A program made the position numbers and the translations under genes. Below the pieces are notes generated by a model. It was not told where the DNA came from. It worked only from the letters and a program-made list of their open reading frames with translations, and made no database searches. A DNA stretch of 34,199 nt from a virus, in the IMG/VR virus record IMGVR_UViG_3300048586_000440, positions 1 to 34,199 of that record. One strand, 5' to 3'. Each line of letters begins with the position of its first letter. Within the stretch, counting starts at the first letter, position 1. Shown piece by piece: positions 1,223 to 34,199 of this stretch.

Positions 1223-1276
1223 GGTGGGCCGCCTGGGGATCGAACCCAGAACCCGCGGATTAAAAGAGCGTGCCAG
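1223..1276 (-). repeat. left attachment repeat with 3' part of tRNA-Lys(UUU)
   Basis: This 54-bp block is identical to 33835-33888. Read on the minus strand it gives the anticodon loop CTTTTAA, the 3' anticodon stem, a variable loop, a perfect 5-bp T stem with TTCGATC loop, the acceptor strand GCGGCCC and discriminator A. Only this left copy is followed by an encoded CCA, which fits the displaced original tRNA end. No 5' half of the tRNA is present. It marks the left boundary of the prophage. Confidence 0.9.
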
Positions 1277-1370: not shown

Positions 1371-2516
1371 TCAGATAGCGCCACGCTGTGGCACGGATGT
1401 GGCACGCCCGACTGGGTCGGGCAGCGCCGCGAGCACCCGCTCGCTCGGCGTCTCAGCCAGGTGCGCGTACCGCTGAGTCGTCAGCGGCGACACGTGCCCG
1501 AGCAGCCGACCGACCTCCGCGAGCGACACCCCGCCCTGGATCTGCCACGACGCGTAGGTGTGGCGAGCGTCGTGCACCCGGGCGTGGCCGATGCCGGCGG
1601 CCTTCACCGCCGCCGCCCACGCCTTGCGGAACGCCGACCCGTCCATCACCTGACCACCCGGGGAGGACAGCACCAGTCCCGAGCGGCACCGCCCGGTCGC
1701 GTGCTCGTGCGGGCAGGTCAGCGCCTTCGGCGACTTCGCGATCTCGGTGAGCAACCAGTCGGGGACCGGCACGTGCCGGATGCGCCGGCCCTTCGGGTAC
1801 CCCTTCATCGCGTGCGCCTCCGGCACCCACGTCTCGGCGACGAGCAGCGTGCGCCGCACGGGGTCGACGCGCCACATGTGCAGGCCCGCGGCCTCACCCC
1901 AGCGCAGGCCCGTGCCGAGCAGAAGGAGGCCGGCGCGCCGATCCTCGCCGTCGAGCTGCTCGAGCACGGCCTGTGCTTCCTCGTGCGTGAGGTAGCGCTC
2001 GGCGCCCTGCGAGGCCGTCGAGAGGCGCAGTCGAGCCGCTGGGTTCGCCGGCAGGATCTCCGCGTCGACCGCGGCGGACAGGGACGCCGAGAACAGCGTC
2101 ACGATGCGCTGCACCGTCGAGGGCCCGGGCGGCGTGCGCACCGCGCCGTCGTCGTCGACCTGGGGGAGTCGCAGCTCCGCAGCCCACGCGCGCACGTCCT
2201 GCCGGGTGATCTCCGCGAGTGGCACGGCGTCCCACTTCGGGATCAGGTAGCGATCGCGGCGCCCCGTGTCCGTGCGGATCGTCGAGGCCTCCACGGCCCG
2301 CGTGGGCCACCACTGCGCGCACCACTGCCCCCACGTCTGGCGCGACGCGTTGGGGTCTCGGTAGCCGGCCCTGCGCGACTTCGCCTCCTCCTCGGCCGCC
2401 AGGCGCAGCGCCTCGGCCTTGTGGGCGTAGGTCTTCCCAAGGGTGCGCTCCTGGCCCTTCGCGTCGCGGTAGCGCCCCTGGTAGCGGCCGGAGGCGAGCT
2501 TGCGGGCGGATGCCAT
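1371..2516 (-). CDS. int: tyrosine site-specific integrase
   Basis: A 381-residue phage integrase that recombines the element's attP with the 3' end of tRNA-Lys. Residues about 8-46 look like an AP2-like arm-binding domain, about 60-165 a SAM-like core-binding domain, and 175-360 the catalytic domain. Catalytic residues visible are Arg205 (LRWGE), His315 and Arg318 (HDARH), His341 (LLGH) and nucleophile Tyr350 (RYAHL). The gene is last in a repressor-protease-integrase operon, three bases after the protease stop, and ends about 95 bp from the attachment core. Its last codons contain the paired TGTGGCAC sites. It is nearly identical at its C-terminus to the second integrase at the right edge. 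Confidence 0.95.
   Translation of the reverse strand: MASARKLASGRYQGRYRDAKGQERTLGKTYAHKAEALRLAAEEEAKSRRAGYRDPNASRQTWGQWCAQWWPTRAVEASTIRTDTGRRDRYLIPKWDAVPLAEITRQDVRAWAAELRLPQVDDDGAVRTPPGPSTVQRIVTLFSASLSAAVDAEILPANPAARLRLSTASQGAERYLTHEEAQAVLEQLDGEDRRAGLLLLGTGLRWGEAAGLHMWRVDPVRRTLLVAETWVPEAHAMKGYPKGRRIRHVPVPDWLLTEIAKSPKALTCPHEHATGRCRSGLVLSSPGGQVMDGSAFRKAWAAAVKAAGIGHARVHDARHTYASWQIQGGVSLAEVGRLLGHVSPLTTQRYAHLAETPSERVLAALPDPVGRATSVPQRGAI
1387..1405. repeat. paired TGTGGCAC sites, left arm
   Basis: TGTGGCAC occurs at 1387-1394 and 1398-1405, an 11-bp period, within the last codons of int. The same 8-mer with the same period occurs at 33777-33795 and 33999-34017, always within about 170 bp of an attachment core. 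I infer arm-type binding sites for the integrase. Confidence 0.55.
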
Positions 2517-17097: not shown

Positions 17098-18510
17098 ATG
17101 ACTCTCGAGCAGCTGATCGCCCAGGCTCGTGAGCGGCTCACCTCGCTGCTCACCGAGCGCTCCACCCAGACCGAGGGCCTCACCGCGCTGCGCGCCGCCC
17201 TTGCCCAGGACGGCGCGACCGTCACCGAGGCCGAAGTCCGCTCGGCCATCGAGGCACGCGACGCCCTCGACCCGCAGATCACCGAGGCGCGCGCCCGCGT
17301 CGAGGAGCTCGAGGCGGAGAAGGCACGCGACGACGCCGCGTCGGCGCTCGCTCGCGAGTTCCACCCCGTCACCCCGGCCGCCACGCGCGCGCCGGCCTAC
17401 GACGCCGTCGGTCGCGTCGGTGCGGAGAAGCGCACCTACAACCCCGACGTCGACAAGCGCGGTACCGGCTTCGCGGCCGATGTCGTGGCATCCCTCGTGG
17501 GCGACTTCGACGCGCGTGAGCGCATCTCGCGCCACACGCAGGAGGAGCGCGTCGAGCGAGGCGTCGACCAGTTCGACGTCCGCGCCGTCGGCACCGGTGC
17601 CTTCACCGGCATCGTCGTCCCGCAGTACCTCGTCGACCAGTTCGCCGGCCTGCCCCGCGCAGACCGCCCGCTCGCCGACGCGATGCGCATGCACGACCTG
17701 CCCGACGTGGGCATGACGGTGAACATCGGCAAGCTCACCACCGGCACCTCGGCGGCGGAGCAGACGTCGGAGAACTCGGCCGTGTCCGAGACCAACGCCG
17801 ACGACACCCTGCTCTCCCCTGCGGTGCTCACCTCGGCCGGTTCGCAGACGGTGTCCCGCCAGGCGTCCGAGCGCGGTGTCGGCGTCGAGGACACGATCAT
17901 CGAGGACCTCATCTCCGCCCAGCGGGCGAACCTCGACTCGATCATCCTCAACAAGGCCGCCGTCGGCCTGACCAACGTCGCGACGTCGATCGCCTACACC
18001 GACGGCACCCCCACCGCCGCGGAGCTGTACCCCAAGCTCCTCGCCGGCCCGGCCGCCGTCGAGGCCTCGATGCTCAACGCCCACCCGGGCGACGTCATCG
18101 CGGTCATGCACTCGCGGCGCTGGTACTGGCTGCAGTCCCAGCTCACCTCGACCTGGCCGCTGTTCGGCCAGCCGGGTGCGGGCGTGCAGAACGCCGGCCA
18201 GAACTACGCCGAGCGCTACGGCAACGGGTTCCGCGGCATCCTGCCGTCGGGCACCCCGGTCATCGTCGACAACAACATCGCGACGAACCTCGGCGCCGGC
18301 ACGAACGAGGACGAGATCTACTTCGTCAGCCAGACCGAGTCCCACCTGTGGGAGGACCCGAACGCCCCGGTCCTCATCCGCGCCGAGCAGACCAACGCGA
18401 AGACGCTGGGCATCGACCTCGTGGTCTACGCCTACTTCGCGTACCTGTTCACCCGGGTCAGCCACGCGCAGAAGATCGCCGGAACTGGCCTGGTCACGCC
18501 TGCGTTCTAG
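17098..18510 (+). CDS. HK97-fold major capsid protein with delta domain
   Basis: A 470-residue capsid protein. Residues 1-85 form a charged coiled coil matching the scaffolding delta domain, followed by a Pro/Ala-rich stretch where the upstream protease should cut (about 90-120). The HK97 core follows, with GTGAFTGIVVPQYLVDQ and the C-terminal domain ending in a hydrophobic strand. A 149-base gap without genes separates it from the protease, and an AACGGAGG-type ribosome site precedes the ATG. Confidence 0.93.
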   Translation: MTLEQLIAQARERLTSLLTERSTQTEGLTALRAALAQDGATVTEAEVRSAIEARDALDPQITEARARVEELEAEKARDDAASALAREFHPVTPAATRAPAYDAVGRVGAEKRTYNPDVDKRGTGFAADVVASLVGDFDARERISRHTQEERVERGVDQFDVRAVGTGAFTGIVVPQYLVDQFAGLPRADRPLADAMRMHDLPDVGMTVNIGKLTTGTSAAEQTSENSAVSETNADDTLLSPAVLTSAGSQTVSRQASERGVGVEDTIIEDLISAQRANLDSIILNKAAVGLTNVATSIAYTDGTPTAAELYPKLLAGPAAVEASMLNAHPGDVIAVMHSRRWYWLQSQLTSTWPLFGQPGAGVQNAGQNYAERYGNGFRGILPSGTPVIVDNNIATNLGAGTNEDEIYFVSQTESHLWEDPNAPVLIRAEQTNAKTLGIDLVVYAYFAYLFTRVSHAQKIAGTGLVTPAF

Positions 18511-26398: not shown

Positions 26399-26550
26399 CC
26401 GTGGTTAGCCGCCTCTGGGGCGGCCTCACCCCGCACCCGTCCGGGCACCCCGGCTCGGTGTGGGACCTGCCCTACAGCACCTGGCTGATGTTCGCCGCGG
26501 CTGCTGACGAGTACGTCGCGAAGATGAAGGAGGCCGGCCATGGCGGGTAG
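25973..26550 (+). CDS. frameshifted tail assembly chaperone (GT-type)
   Basis: A -1 shift at 26341-26347 would fuse about 125 residues of G to about 67 residues read in the -1 frame, ending at 26550, about 192 residues in all. The -1 frame stays open from well before the slip site and has a protein-like sequence (LTPHPSGHPG, then VWDLPYSTWLMFAAA), typical of T domains. GT fusions recruit tail-tube subunits to the tape measure. The fusion ends 11 bases inside the tape measure gene. Confidence 0.8.
26341..26347 (+). other. -1 frameshift heptamer CCGAAAG
   Basis: In the zero frame it reads C CGA AAG; a -1 slip re-pairs to CCG AAA. The A-site Lys tRNA re-pairs well, the P-site less so. Of the sequences in the overlap between the two frames it is the best slip site I see. 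A tandem GAAGAAG run 30 bases later is an alternative. Confidence 0.6.
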
Positions 26551-27688
26551 CGTCGCGATGTCCTACCGCCTCTTCGGCGAGGACGTCTCCGCGAGCAAGG
26601 CCATGAAGGGCGTCGGTGACGCCGCCGACAAGGCCGGAGAGCAGATCGAGGACGCCGCCGGCAAGGGCGACAGCCTCGGCCGCGTCGGTGACCACGCCGA
26701 CGTCTCCGAGCAGCGCATCATGGGCCTCAAGGACTCCGTCGACGGCCTGTCCACCGTCCTTCAGGGCCCCGGTGAGCAGGGCGTAGCGGCGTACCTGCAG
26801 GGCTGGGCCGACATGGCCTCCGGTGTCGCGAACTTCGTCATCCCGTCGCTGGGGATGCTGCGCCCCTCGGTCATCAAGAACGCCGCGGCCACGGCCTGGT
26901 CGACGACGACGCAGTACGCCGCGGCCGCGGCCTCGAAGGTCATGGCGGCCGGGCAGTGGCTGCTCAACGCAGCGCTGTCCGCCAACCCGATCGGCCTGGT
27001 CGTGCTGGCGATCGCCGCCCTGATAGCCATCGTCGTGCTCGCCTACCAGAAGAACGAGACGTTCCGACGCATCGTCGACGCCGTCTGGACGGGCATCAAG
27101 ACCGCGATCTCGGCCGTCGTGAACTGGTTCATGAACACCGCCTGGCCGATCCTGCAGCGCGTCATCGGCTTCATCATCGGCTACTACAAGCTGCTGTGGA
27201 CGGTCTTCTCGACGGTCGTCGGCTGGATCATCGAGAAGGGCAAGGCCCTCGTCAGCTGGTTCACCGGCCTACCCGAGCGCATCGGCTCCGCGGTGTCCGG
27301 CCTGTGGGACGGCATCAAGGACTCGTTCCGCAACGCCCTGAACTGGATCATCCGCGCCTGGAACGACTTCCAGATCCAGTTCCCCAGCTTCGACTTCGAC
27401 TGGAACGGCCCCCTGCCTGGTGGAGAGGTCACCGTCGGCGGGTGGACCGTCAACACCCCGAACATCCCGCAGCTCGCTGCGGGCGGCATCGTGCGCCGCC
27501 GCCCGGGCGGCATCCTGGCGAACATCGGTGAGGGCCGCTACGACGAGGCCATCGTCCCTCTCGACGGCCGCGGGCTCGGTGACACCTACAACATCTACGT
27601 GACGCAGCCGCTGGGATCGCCCGCGCAGATCGCCCGCGCTGTCGCTGCCGCCACCACGCGCGCGGGCCGCAACGGCGCGGTGGCCTGA
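26540..27688 (+). CDS. tape measure protein, unusually short
   Basis: A 382-residue tape measure. The N-terminal 90 residues are amphipathic helix with Asp/Ala/Lys repeats. One strong hydrophobic stretch lies at about 152-172, and further Trp/Ile-rich hydrophobic segments at 185-250 would enter the host membrane. The end is a globular Gly-rich part with the common AAGGIVRRRPGGILANIGEG motif. Most siphophage tape measures exceed 600 residues, so the tail should be short, near 57 nm at 0.15 nm per residue. ATG after AGGAGG. Confidence 0.88.
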   Translation: MAGSVAMSYRLFGEDVSASKAMKGVGDAADKAGEQIEDAAGKGDSLGRVGDHADVSEQRIMGLKDSVDGLSTVLQGPGEQGVAAYLQGWADMASGVANFVIPSLGMLRPSVIKNAAATAWSTTTQYAAAAASKVMAAGQWLLNAALSANPIGLVVLAIAALIAIVVLAYQKNETFRRIVDAVWTGIKTAISAVVNWFMNTAWPILQRVIGFIIGYYKLLWTVFSTVVGWIIEKGKALVSWFTGLPERIGSAVSGLWDGIKDSFRNALNWIIRAWNDFQIQFPSFDFDWNGPLPGGEVTVGGWTVNTPNIPQLAAGGIVRRRPGGILANIGEGRYDEAIVPLDGRGLGDTYNIYVTQPLGSPAQIARAVAAATTRAGRNGAVA

Positions 27689-30983: not shown

Positions 30984-31639
30984 TGCCCCGCGTCCCCCTC
31001 GCGGGCGGGAAGGTCACCGACGCCCGCACCGCCGCCATGCTCGCCGAGGCGCAGCGCGTCGCCGGCTTCTCGTTCCAGTACGCCCAGGGCTCCTACAACG
31101 GGAACGCAGTGTTCGCCTCCGGCGGCACCCACGCCGGCGGCGGCGTCATCGACATCCGCACCGTGCCGATGAAGAACCGCAAGCAGAAGCTCAAGGCCGT
31201 CAAGGCGCTGCGCACCGTCGGCTTCGCCGCGTGGCTGCGCCCCTACGCCGCCGGCGTCTGGGGCGAGCACATCCACGCCGTGGCGGTCGGCTGCTCCGAC
31301 CTGTCCTCGGCTGCCGCCGGCCAGGTGCGGGCATACAACAACGGGCGCGACGGCCTGGTCGGCAACCGGCCCGACCCACAGGCCTCGCTCGGCGTGAAGC
31401 CCACGACGTGGGAGGCCTACAGGCAGTCGCTCAAGCCGACCCGCGGGCGGGCCACTGTCACCGACTCACGCGGCGCCGCCGTGCGCCGCGAGCCGGGCGG
31501 CCACACCCGTCAGGTCAAGCGCCGCGCCAAGGGCGAGACCTTCACCTACACCGCCGTCCGCGTCGTCAACGGCGTCGCCTACCTGCGGACCCTCGCAGGC
31601 AACTGGATCCGCTCGAGCCGAACGACGAGGGGTGCCTGA
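30983..31639 (+). CDS. endolysin: M15-like peptidase plus SH3 domain
   Basis: A 218-residue lysin. The first 110 residues carry the D-Ala-D-Ala carboxypeptidase-like (M15-type) zinc site: His50 and Asp57 in THAGGGVIDIR, and His96 and/or His98 in EHIHAV. Residues about 155-212 form an SH3_3-type cell-wall binding domain (VRREPGG...GVAYLRT...NWIRSS). It should cut peptidoglycan cross-bridges during lysis. Directly follows the holin. Confidence 0.85.
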   Translation: MPRVPLAGGKVTDARTAAMLAEAQRVAGFSFQYAQGSYNGNAVFASGGTHAGGGVIDIRTVPMKNRKQKLKAVKALRTVGFAAWLRPYAAGVWGEHIHAVAVGCSDLSSAAAGQVRAYNNGRDGLVGNRPDPQASLGVKPTTWEAYRQSLKPTRGRATVTDSRGAAVRREPGGHTRQVKRRAKGETFTYTAVRVVNGVAYLRTLAGNWIRSSRTTRGA

Positions 31640-32619
31640 TGTACGCCGAGCAGCTCACCAGCCTCGGAGCGTCGATCGACGCCACCCTCGAGGCGCAGGC
31701 CCTCGCCCTGAGCAACGCGGAGACCGAGCGCGACATCGCACAGCGTGAGGCCGCCGCGGCCGCGGAGAAGGTCACGACCCTGACCGGCTCGCTCGCGCAG
31801 CAGACCGCGGCCACCGCCGACGCCCGCACCGCGCTCACCGCGTGCCAGAGCGCGCGGCTCACGCTCGAGCAGCGGGTCCGCGACCTCGAGGCGCAGCTCG
31901 CATCGGCCGGCGCCGTTCCGGCCGGGTGGAAGGTCGCCTTCGAGGACACCTTCGCCGGCACCTCGGTCGACCGGTCGAAGTGGAACGTGCGCGACAACAC
32001 CACCCAGAACAACATGGACGGCCGCAACTGGGCGAAGAACGCCATCGTGAAGGACGGTGTCCTGTCGTTCAGCAGCGGCGCCCCTGGGGCTGACGGGAAG
32101 TGGCCTTGCGGCTACCTCGACACCATCGGGAAGTTCTCCTTCCAGTACGGCCGCGTCGAGGCCCGCATGCGCCACCCGTGGGGTGCGGACGCGACCGGGT
32201 TCTGGGGTGCGTTCTGGCTCCGCCCCGACGACGGCGGCGACGGTGAGATCGACGTCATGGAGGCCTGGCCGGCCAAGGGCGAGATCGGGCCGACGCTGCA
32301 CAACGACTACCGCACCGGCGCCACCCACATCCCGCACCGCGGCTACCGCATCCCCGTCACCGGCTGGAACCCCGAGGACTGGCACGTCTACGCCCTCGAC
32401 TGGGAGAAGGGCTCCCTGCGGTTCCTGCTCGACGACAAGGTCATCTGGGCACCCACGACGGCGCAGCTGCCCTGGTTGACCGTGTTCGACCGGCCGGTGA
32501 AGTGGAACCTGCGCCTCAACCTCCAGATGGGCGGCAGCTGGGGCGGCAAGCCCACCGCGGCGACCAACCTCGCGCAGACCTTCGACCTCGACTACGTCCG
32601 GGTCCTCACGAAGACCTGA
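31639..32619 (+). CDS. coiled-coil GH16-family glycoside hydrolase
   Basis: A 326-residue protein. Residues 1-92 form a coiled coil rich in Ala/Glu/Thr heptads; residues 97-326 are a GH16 domain. The catalytic motif GEIDVMEAW gives Glu203 as nucleophile, Asp205, and Glu208 as acid/base. GH16 enzymes cut beta-1,3/1,4-glucans and related polysaccharides. No signal peptide is seen, so export would come with the virion or by lysis. It overlaps the lysin stop by one base and is the last late gene before the terminator. Possible capsule depolymerase or tail-bound spike. Confidence 0.88.
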   Translation: MYAEQLTSLGASIDATLEAQALALSNAETERDIAQREAAAAAEKVTTLTGSLAQQTAATADARTALTACQSARLTLEQRVRDLEAQLASAGAVPAGWKVAFEDTFAGTSVDRSKWNVRDNTTQNNMDGRNWAKNAIVKDGVLSFSSGAPGADGKWPCGYLDTIGKFSFQYGRVEARMRHPWGADATGFWGAFWLRPDDGGDGEIDVMEAWPAKGEIGPTLHNDYRTGATHIPHRGYRIPVTGWNPEDWHVYALDWEKGSLRFLLDDKVIWAPTTAQLPWLTVFDRPVKWNLRLNLQMGGSWGGKPTAATNLAQTFDLDYVRVLTKT

Positions 32620-32657
32620 CCCGCTCGGCCGTCACCGGACCCTCCGGTCGAGCGACG

Positions 32658-32700
32658 ACGCCCCCCGACCCAGCCCCAAGGGCTGCTGGTCGGGGGGCGT
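32658..32700 (+). terminator. strong intrinsic terminator
   Basis: ACGCCCCCCGACC (32658-32670) pairs perfectly with GGTCGGGGGGCGT (32688-32700), a 13-bp stem around a 17-base loop, followed by the T-rich TTCGTCGTTGT. It lies between the late operon and the convergent lysogeny genes and may work in both directions. Confidence 0.88.
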
Positions 32701-32729
32701 TTCGTCGTTGTGCTGCCGGAGGGGCAGAC

Positions 32730-32906
32730 CTAGCGCAGGATCGCCACGACCGCATCGCTCGCGTCCACCTCGAGCACCGCCTGCACGAGGCTCCGCACCT
32801 GCGCGTCGACGTCAGACAGATCCTCGACCTGCGTGACGCCGACGCCGTCGACGTGCAACTCCCACCCGTGCTCCCACGGCACGACGCAGACCTCGTAGCG
32901 GTTCAT
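32730..32906 (-). CDS. small HicB-like protein (58 aa)
   Basis: A 58-residue protein with the short beta-beta-beta-alpha pattern of HicB-like proteins: YEVCVVPWEHGWELHVDG, then VTQVEDLSDVDAQVRSLV. HicB proteins usually neutralise HicA toxins, but no HicA gene is present, so the antitoxin role is unproven. The ATG at 32906 gives a four-base ATGA overlap with the upstream DUF3263 gene; an ATG at 32915 is also possible. Confidence 0.6.
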   Translation of the reverse strand: MNRYEVCVVPWEHGWELHVDGVGVTQVEDLSDVDAQVRSLVQAVLEVDASDAVVAILR

Positions 32907-33154
32907 GTCGCCCATGATCGCACCGAGCGCCCCCGTGCGCGCTGATCACGCAGCCGCTGCAGCCGACGCACCGTCGTGGGCGCGTAGGCCAGCGCCTCCG
33001 GCCGGTCGAGCAGGCCGAGCACCAGCTGGTGGTACCGCGTCGCCGACAGGTCGAACAGGTCCCGGATCGCCTGGTCGCGGTGCCCGGCGTACCGCCACGT
33101 CTTCCCAGCGAAGTCGAGCAGGCTGCGCTCGAGGTCCGTGAGTGGCTGGGGCAT
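32903..33154 (-). CDS. DUF3263-family protein
   Basis: An 83-residue helical protein matching the actinobacterial DUF3263 pattern: LTDLERSLLDF, then WRYAGHRDQAIRDLFDLSATRYHQLVL and RPEALAYAP. Function is unknown; the middle helices look HTH-like. It has its own predicted promoter with TACCGT seven bases before the ATG, so it is probably expressed from a leaderless message in the lysogen. It overlaps the HicB-like gene by four bases. Confidence 0.8.
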   Translation of the reverse strand: MPQPLTDLERSLLDFAGKTWRYAGHRDQAIRDLFDLSATRYHQLVLGLLDRPEALAYAPTTVRRLQRLRDQRARGRSVRSWAT

Positions 33155-33190: not shown

Positions 33191-33658
33191 CTACAGGCCG
33201 ACGGCCTTCACGGCCTGCTCCGCCTGCGCCTGCGTGAACTGGTCGCCATACGCCGAGGTCAGCTGCTTCAGCAGCGACTTGCGGCTGAACGACCCCGTCT
33301 CCAGGTACGACTTCGCGGCCTCGACCGCCTCGGCGTTCCAGTCGACCTTGATCCGCTTGATCGCGAACAGCGCATCCGCCTTCGCGTACCCCTCGCCGTA
33401 GTCCGACGTGAGCTGCTTGAGCAGGCCCTTCTCGCTGAACGACTGCCCGTCGACGTAGGACTGCGCCGACTCGATCGCGTTCTGCTGCGCGACCGTGTAC
33501 GCCGGCTCGGCCGGTGTCTCACCTGCGGGCGTCTCGGCGGCCGAGGACTCGCCCGCTGCCGGCTGAGACGCACCCGGCGTCGCGGTCCCGCTCGATGCTC
33601 CGCACCCGGCCAGGCTCAGTGCCGCGACGAGGCACGCGGCTGCGGTCGTGGACTTCAT
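33191..33658 (-). CDS. ltp: Ltp-family lipoprotein, candidate superinfection exclusion
   Basis: A 155-residue lipoprotein. Residues 1-18 are a signal peptide ending in lipobox LAGC, so Cys19 is lipidated and the protein sits on the outer face of the membrane. A Ser/Thr/Pro/Glu linker (20-52) is followed by two Ltp-type repeats, about 57-104 and 106-155, each containing SFS..LLKQLTS.YG. The Streptococcus thermophilus prophage TP-J34 protein Ltp has this layout and blocks DNA injection by related phages. The gene lies beside the attachment site, away from lytic operons. ATG after GGGGG, with a possible -10 TACGAT at 33716-33721. Confidence 0.85.
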   Translation of the reverse strand: MKSTTAAACLVAALSLAGCGASSGTATPGASQPAAGESSAAETPAGETPAEPAYTVAQQNAIESAQSYVDGQSFSEKGLLKQLTSDYGEGYAKADALFAIKRIKVDWNAEAVEAAKSYLETGSFSRKSLLKQLTSAYGDQFTQAQAEQAVKAVGL

Positions 33659-33776: not shown

Positions 33777-33795
33777 TGTGGCACGTCTGTGGCAC
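33777..33795. repeat. paired TGTGGCAC sites, right arm
   Basis: TGTGGCAC at 33777-33784 and 33788-33795, 11-bp period, about 40 bp left of the right attachment repeat. Same motif and spacing as within the 3' end of both integrase genes, so this is the likely opposite arm of the attachment site. It lies in a 324-base gene-free gap (33659-33982). Confidence 0.6.
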
Positions 33796-33834
33796 GCGCT
33801 GCGGGCGCAAGGGCAGGGATCCCTTGCGGGAGTA

Positions 33835-33888
33835 GGTGGGCCGCCTGGGGATCGAACCCAGAACCCGCGGATTAAAAGAGCGTGCCAG
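33835..33888 (-). repeat. right attachment repeat with 3' part of tRNA-Lys(UUU)
   Basis: Identical over 54 bp to 1223-1276. After the discriminator A this copy reads CCT instead of CCA, as expected of a copy carried in by an element. The 5' half of the tRNA is again absent; a second integrase follows. This is therefore a junction between two tandem elements, right end of one and left end of the next. Confidence 0.9.
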
Positions 33889-33982
33889 GCTCCTAGCGTC
33901 TCCTAGCGCACGTCGGCGCGGATGCCCGAAAAGCCTTGCATCACACCTAGTTTCGGCTGTTCACACCTAGAACCCGCTGGCC

Positions 33983-34199
33983 TCAGATAGCGCCGCGCTG
34001 TGGCACGTCTGTGGCACGCCCGGATGGGTCGGGGAGCGCTGCCAGCACGCGATCGCTGGGCGTCTCGGCCAGGTGCGCGTACCGCTGCGTCGTCAGCGGC
34101 GACACGTGTCCGAGCAGCCGACCGACCTCGGCGAGCGACACACCGCCCTGAATCTGCCACGACGCGTATGTGTGGCGGGCGTCGTGGACCCGGGCGTGC
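33983..34199 (-). CDS. int: second integrase, 3' end only (cut by window edge)
   Basis: The last 71 residues of a tyrosine integrase, open to the right edge. It keeps the HDARH pair, LLGH, and nucleophile Tyr in RYAHL. It differs from the first integrase at only three of 71 residues (Glu to Asp, Val to Ser, Ser to Asp) yet has many silent changes, so it is a diverged homologue and not a recent copy. It lies at the same distance and orientation from its attachment repeat. It begins a second element. Confidence 0.92.
33999..34017. repeat. paired TGTGGCAC sites, left arm of second element
   Basis: TGTGGCAC at 33999-34006 and 34010-34017, 11-bp period, in the last codons of the second integrase. 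Conserved between the two elements despite silent changes around it. Confidence 0.55.

What the first reader, a model, noticed from the sequence alone, without database searches (positions are those of the whole stretch)
33191..33658. Ltp-type lipoprotein as a superinfection-exclusion gene in an actinobacterial prophage
The gene has a lipobox and two repeats of the Ltp type, sits in the lysogeny cassette next to the att site, and is oriented away from lytic genes. Ltp of streptococcal phage TP-J34 stops DNA injection by related phages and is thought to act on their tape measure protein. A counterpart in a high-GC host with a quite different envelope would be notable.
Basis: partly seen in the sequence, partly recalled or inferred. 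Interest (0 to 1): 0.75.

Follow-up and report, generated by a model that had tools for sequence, protein, structure and literature searches.

The report
Ltp-family lipoprotein in an actinobacterial prophage
A dormant virus in an actinobacterium-like host carries a small surface lipoprotein of the known Ltp family, which probably stops rival viruses from injecting their DNA; it is a good but ordinary new member of a family already reported in other actinobacterial viruses.

Summary
The gene is real: 33191-33658 (-), 155 aa, signal peptide ending in LAGC, low-complexity spacer, two PF07553 repeats (110.7 bits). The predicted fold matches the crystal structure of TP-J34 Ltp (4eqq; TM 0.86-0.88, rmsd 1.3-1.8 Å), and PHROGs files it under superinfection exclusion. 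The prophage is real: a 53-bp core from the 3' half of a tRNA-Lys(TTT) gene is repeated at 1224-1276 and 33836-33888, with arm-type sites. The position needs correcting: ltp lies at the lysis-side end, this prophage's integrase at the other end (1371-2516). The integrase fragment right of ltp belongs to a second element inserted in tandem. Ltp is followed by a DUF3263 gene, whose relatives lie near the integrase in all four actinophages examined (three with the immunity repressor), so lysogenic expression is plausible. Exclusion, and the tape measure as target, remain inferred. The claimed novelty fails: about 100 Gordonia phage records and P. freudenreichii phage PFR1 carry homologs, many annotated 'superinfection exclusion'; a 2015 paper made the point for a Gordonia phage; 36 of 149 sampled genomes of one order have the domain. 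One modest lead: three other phages carry unrelated lipoproteins near the same gene or prophage end.

The parts
33191..33658 (-). ltp gene: 155-aa lipoprotein (lipobox LAGC, Cys19; spacer about 20-54; repeats about 55-102 and 106-152)
33353..33487 (-). first PF07553 repeat
   Evidence: 55.9 bits
33203..33343 (-). second PF07553 repeat
   Evidence: 65 bits
32903..33154 (-). DUF3263 gene (HTH-like, similar to NapA), 36 bp downstream of ltp on the same strand; probable operon partner
   Evidence: (PF11662, 96.1 bits); relatives near int in four actinophages
32731..32918 (-). small ORF, about 60 aa, same strand, possible third gene of the operon
   Evidence: sequence; 34-aa match, 53%, in G004
32657..32702 (.). 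strong hairpin, probable terminator between the lytic genes and the ltp operon
   Evidence: z -4.8 and -4.2
33836..33888 (.). att core (3' half of tRNA-Lys TTT, read on - strand) at the right end of the prophage
   Evidence: ARAGORN's 'tRNA-Ala' here is a mis-call of the fused fragment
1224..1276 (.). att core at the left end of the prophage
33778..33797 (+). arm-type site between ltp and the right core
1388..1407 (+). arm-type site on the int side of this prophage
1371..2516 (-). tyrosine integrase of this prophage
   Evidence: PF00589, 75.1 bits
26540..27688 (+). tape measure protein of this phage (382 aa)
   Evidence: phrog_4197, 3.7e-37
33983..34199 (-). 3' end of a second integrase, of another element inserted in tandem (runs off the window)

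Best explanation
It is a phage-encoded Ltp-type lipoprotein expressed from the integrated prophage. It is exported, lipidated at Cys19 and anchored on the outer face of the cytoplasmic membrane by a flexible spacer of about 34 residues. Its two three-helix repeats bind a component of an incoming phage's ejection machinery, most likely the tape measure protein as it leaves the tail, so that DNA does not enter and the lysogen keeps out related siphoviruses. Shown: gene, lipobox motif, repeats, fold match (predicted model), prophage ends, strand. Inferred: expression in the lysogen, export and lipidation, exclusion activity, and tape measure as target. The confidence given is for exclusion at DNA entry; for the tape measure as the target it is about 0.4.
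For: PF07553 twice; PHROG 4980 and 15667, both 'superinfection exclusion', 4.8e-37 and 4e-32. The predicted model (pLDDT about 97 over the repeats) matches 4eqq, Ltp of TP-J34, at TM 0.86-0.88, and no other solved structure at E<=0.001. Local alignment to TP-J34 Ltp over most of the protein, 26% identity, with the same order of lipobox, spacer and repeats. Located at the lysis-side end of an integrated prophage, on the anti-lytic strand, 178 bp from the att core, behind a strong hairpin. Followed by DUF3263, whose relatives lie with the immunity repressor and near int in Fenry, BritBrat and prophiGD17-1, and near int in Phrank15. Ltp homologs lie in the lysogeny region in TP-J34 and PFR1. Ltp of TP-J34 blocks DNA injection and is thought to bind the tape measure C-terminus (PMC3952083).
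Against: No activity data for this protein or, in the papers found, for any actinobacterial PF07553 protein. Most relatives appear TM-anchored rather than lipidated (60 of 80 genome loci and 48 of 80 viral loci), so the domain may have other roles. The repeat domain is among the least acidic of the aligned set (net -1; about 49th of 52 from the most acidic), while the TP-J34 model relies on acidic residues; TP-J34 itself is only -3. No sigma-70-like promoter was found, which says little for a high-GC host. None of 48 capsid relatives (many fragmentary) has PF07553. Some Gordonia phages carry the gene among early or structural genes, and GTE6 was described as apparently lytic, so it is not purely a lysogen gene family.
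Confidence: 0.65

Rival explanations
1. It is a lysogenic-conversion lipoprotein with a benefit other than exclusion, for example an envelope or stress function like that which the chromosomal PF07553 proteins may have, and exclusion is not its job here.
For: PF07553 is found in 36 of 149 genomes of the order and in plasmids of many phyla; only 4 of 80 genome loci have a detectable tyrosine integrase within 8 kb, so most copies are not obviously prophage genes; a pneumococcal surface protein, CbpL, is discussed together with Ltp (PMC5137146, listed).
Against: This copy is a short stand-alone lipoprotein of TP-J34 type within prophage ends; the two best PHROG families are both filed as superinfection exclusion.
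Confidence: 0.22
2. It excludes phages, but by acting on something other than the tape measure protein, such as a receptor, a pore or a tail-tip protein (a sub-case of exclusion).
For: Repeats nearly neutral here; the tape measure model rests on one system, and phages of the c2 species respond differently (PMC3952083).
Against: Fold and architecture match TP-J34 Ltp closely.
Confidence: 0.25
3. Passenger: the prophage is defective or the gene is silent and has no present role.
For: The tape measure ORF is short compared with relatives; another element is inserted in tandem at the same site.
Against: Open frame with intact lipobox and the conserved repeat columns; int, capsid and tail genes open.
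Confidence: 0.12

Closest known systems
Ltp of Streptococcus thermophilus phage TP-J34 (PDB 4eqq)
   Same: Lipobox, low-complexity spacer, two PF07553 repeats; predicted fold TM 0.86-0.88; transcribed against the lytic genes in a temperate phage
   Different: 26% identity; ltp of TP-J34 lies between int and repressor, here on the other side of attP next to DUF3263; high-GC phage; function untested
Orf27 of Propionibacterium freudenreichii phage PFR1 (annotated 'superinfection exclusion')
   Same: Ltp-type lipoprotein in a phage of an actinobacterium, in the lysogeny region
   Different: About 41% identity over the repeats; lies between repressor and integrase
Gordonia phage Sour gp76 and Mariokart gp80 (annotated superinfection exclusion / lipoprotein)
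   Same: Closest named phage homologs, 57% and 51% identity over the repeats
   Different: Much more acidic repeats (net -14 and -12); larger phages with another gene order
Chromosomal PF07553 proteins of Cellulomonas and Microbacterium
   Same: Repeats up to 62% identical
   Different: Longer, most with N-terminal extensions and a TM segment instead of a lipobox

Membership tests
Ltp-type superinfection exclusion lipoprotein | Two PF07553 (Lipoprotein_Ltp) repeats above the curated cut-off | tested here: met
   110.7 bits against 23.2; both repeats
Ltp-type superinfection exclusion lipoprotein | Lipoprotein signal peptide with lipobox | tested here: met
   MKSTTAAACLVAALSLAGC; strict pattern scan, (by sequence only, no lipidation assay)
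Ltp-type superinfection exclusion lipoprotein | Fold of two tandem three-helix repeats as in 4eqq | tested here: met
   (predicted model)
Ltp-type superinfection exclusion lipoprotein | Acidic repeat surface proposed to bind the tape measure C-terminus | tested here: inconclusive
   net charge -1 to -2 here, -3 in TP-J34; surface not mapped
Ltp-type superinfection exclusion lipoprotein | Encoded in a prophage, in or beside the lysogeny region | tested here: met
   178 bp from the att core at the lysis-side end; not between int and repressor as in TP-J34
Ltp-type superinfection exclusion lipoprotein | Transcribed in the prophage state | not testable with these tools
   Only indirect: strand, hairpin and DUF3263 partner
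Ltp-type superinfection exclusion lipoprotein | Blocks DNA injection by superinfecting phages | not testable with these tools
   Needs an infection assay
Ltp-type superinfection exclusion lipoprotein | Acts on the tape measure protein | not testable with these tools
   Needs a binding assay or escape mutants

The most novel reading that the evidence does not exclude
The end of these actinobacterial prophages next to DUF3263 and att is an exchange slot for unrelated surface lipoproteins, of which Ltp is one; the others would be new superinfection-exclusion lipoproteins. Lipobox ORFs without detected homology to Ltp lie next to DUF3263 in G007 (27 bp) and G049 (about 70 bp), and about 1.3 kb from it in G004.
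Probability: 0.25. Interest if true: 0.45.

Novelty: new member of a known kind. Interest (0 to 1): 0.2.

Why it matters
If active, it would extend the Ltp exclusion mechanism, worked out in streptococci and lactococci, to a prophage of a high-GC actinobacterium with a different envelope. Many actinophages carry homologs without functional tests, so any one assay would be useful, but this copy is not a special case. The lipoprotein slot, if it holds up in more genomes, would be a way to find new exclusion genes.

Tried and rejected
Scan of viral contigs with the single protein: no relative; an alignment query gave 94 viral and at least 462 genome loci. Idea that phage copies are lipoproteins and chromosomal ones TM proteins: only a weak tendency, 21 of 80 against 13 of 80, Fisher p 0.18, dropped. 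Idea that the charge pattern supports or excludes the tape measure target: inconclusive. PADLOC: best E 0.011, not meaningful. NCBIfam: no hit for the protein. The 'tRNA-Ala' was rejected as a mis-call of a tRNA-Lys fragment. Idea that the neighbouring integrase belongs to this prophage: rejected because a complete one lies at 1371-2516 and the two are only 88% identical. Host not identified: the best integrase relatives in 396 genomes of the sampled order were 44-57% identical.

Full report
Observation. The ORF at 33191-33658 (-) is real and encodes 155 aa. It has a short signal peptide with the lipobox LAGC (Cys19), a spacer rich in Ala, Ser, Thr, Pro, Gly and Glu, and two PF07553 repeats (110.7 bits in all, cut-off 23.2). 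In the whole window it is the only ORF that passes a strict lipoprotein signal pattern.

Structure. AlphaFold2 on an alignment of 52 sequences gives helices 56-71, 76-84, 93-102 and 107-121, 126-134, 143-152, with pLDDT about 97 over the repeats. In the PDB the only matches with E<=0.001 are the two chains of 4eqq, Ltp of phage TP-J34 (TM 0.86 and 0.88 by target length, rmsd 1.3 and 1.8). By sequence, phmmer also finds only 4eqq (1.5e-6). Identity to TP-J34 Ltp is 26%. In the library of viral structures all named matches with E<=0.001 but one are host cell surface-exposed lipoproteins or a Gordonia phage lipoprotein.

Prophage. The window is an IMG/VR record. A 53-bp sequence with the 3' half of a tRNA-Lys(TTT) gene, read on the - strand, occurs at 1224-1276 and 33836-33888. 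An arm-type repeat lies on the int side of each core (1388 and 34000) and on the ltp side of the right core (33778). The prophage therefore spans about 1224-33888, with int (1371-2516, -) at the left end, capsid (17098-18510), tape measure (26540-27688), tail and lysis genes on +, and ltp at the right end on -. Left of 1224 is probably host DNA. Right of 33888 lies the 3' end of a second integrase, 88% identical at DNA level over 377 bp and 94% identical in protein over 71 residues to the int of G001, so a second element seems to be inserted in tandem.

Operon. ltp is followed after 36 bp by a DUF3263 gene (PF11662, 96.1 bits; NapA-like but below that model's cut-off) and then a small ORF. A hairpin of -42 kcal/mol separates them from the lytic genes. 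DUF3263 matches 239 phage records, 232 of them of Gordonia and Arthrobacter. In Fenry, BritBrat and prophiGD17-1 it lies in a row with the immunity repressor and close to the integrase, and in Phrank15 close to the integrase. This makes expression in the lysogen likely, but is indirect.

Distribution. tblastn finds 149 phage records, 100 of Gordonia phages, many annotated 'superinfection exclusion' or 'lipoprotein', and PFR1 of P. freudenreichii with the gene between repressor and integrase. Plasmids: 35 records in several phyla. Genomes: at least 462 loci. In one actinobacterial order 36 of 149 sampled genomes have the domain. Of 80 viral Ltp loci 11 have a tyrosine integrase within 8 kb, against 0 of 80 capsid loci used as control. 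The gene is accessory here: 0 of 48 records that share the capsid gene, many of them fragments, have it.

Literature. TP-J34 Ltp is expressed from the prophage, blocks DNA injection, and is thought to act through acidic residues on the tape measure C-terminus (PMC3952083). A PF07553 gene was already discussed as superinfection exclusion in Gordonia phage GTE6 in 2015 (PMC4524720). A Cutibacterium study lists PFR1 and PFR2 as Ltp homologs, 47% identical to TP-J34 Ltp (PMC11480721); its own candidate, gp41, has only a marginal match (E about 1) and a different predicted fold. I found no infection test of a true PF07553 protein from an actinophage in the searched library.

Mechanism. The most likely function is superinfection exclusion at the DNA-entry step (0.65). 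The tape measure protein as target is less sure (about 0.4), because the repeat domain is nearly neutral (net -1, among the least acidic of 52; TP-J34 -3).

Side lead. G007, G004 and G049 each have a lipobox ORF without detected relation to Ltp near DUF3263 or the same end. G007 and G004 were scanned whole and have no other such ORF; for G049 only about 10 kb was scanned. G003, G014, G015 and G001 have none, and they also lack DUF3263; G050 and G051 have DUF3263 without such an ORF in the stretch scanned. The set is small and was noticed after the fact, so it is a hypothesis.

Noticed in passing
33889-34199: Junction with a second element at the same tRNA-Lys site: 3' end of an integrase 88% identical in DNA to this prophage's own; probable tandem prophages or a satellite.
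   Followed up: partly
31639-32619 (+): GH16 beta-glucanase-like protein with a probable coiled-coil N-terminus in the lysis region; PF00722 58 bits, only one match (31% identity) in 50,697 phage records.
   Followed up: partly
26540-27688 (+): Tape measure protein of only 382 aa; in G004 the matches to its N- and C-terminal parts lie about 1.45 kb apart, so a long middle part seems missing here.
   Followed up: partly
33835-33919 (-): ARAGORN 'tRNA-Ala' is a tRNA-Lys 3' half fused to phage arm DNA.
   Followed up: yes
L099:2833-3453, L095:2223-2549, L106:4429-4923: Unrelated lipobox ORFs near DUF3263 or the same prophage end in other phages; possible exchange slot.
   Followed up: partly
L099:1142-1508: Related prophage G007 appears to use a tmRNA gene as attachment site, with int directly beside it.
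   Followed up: no
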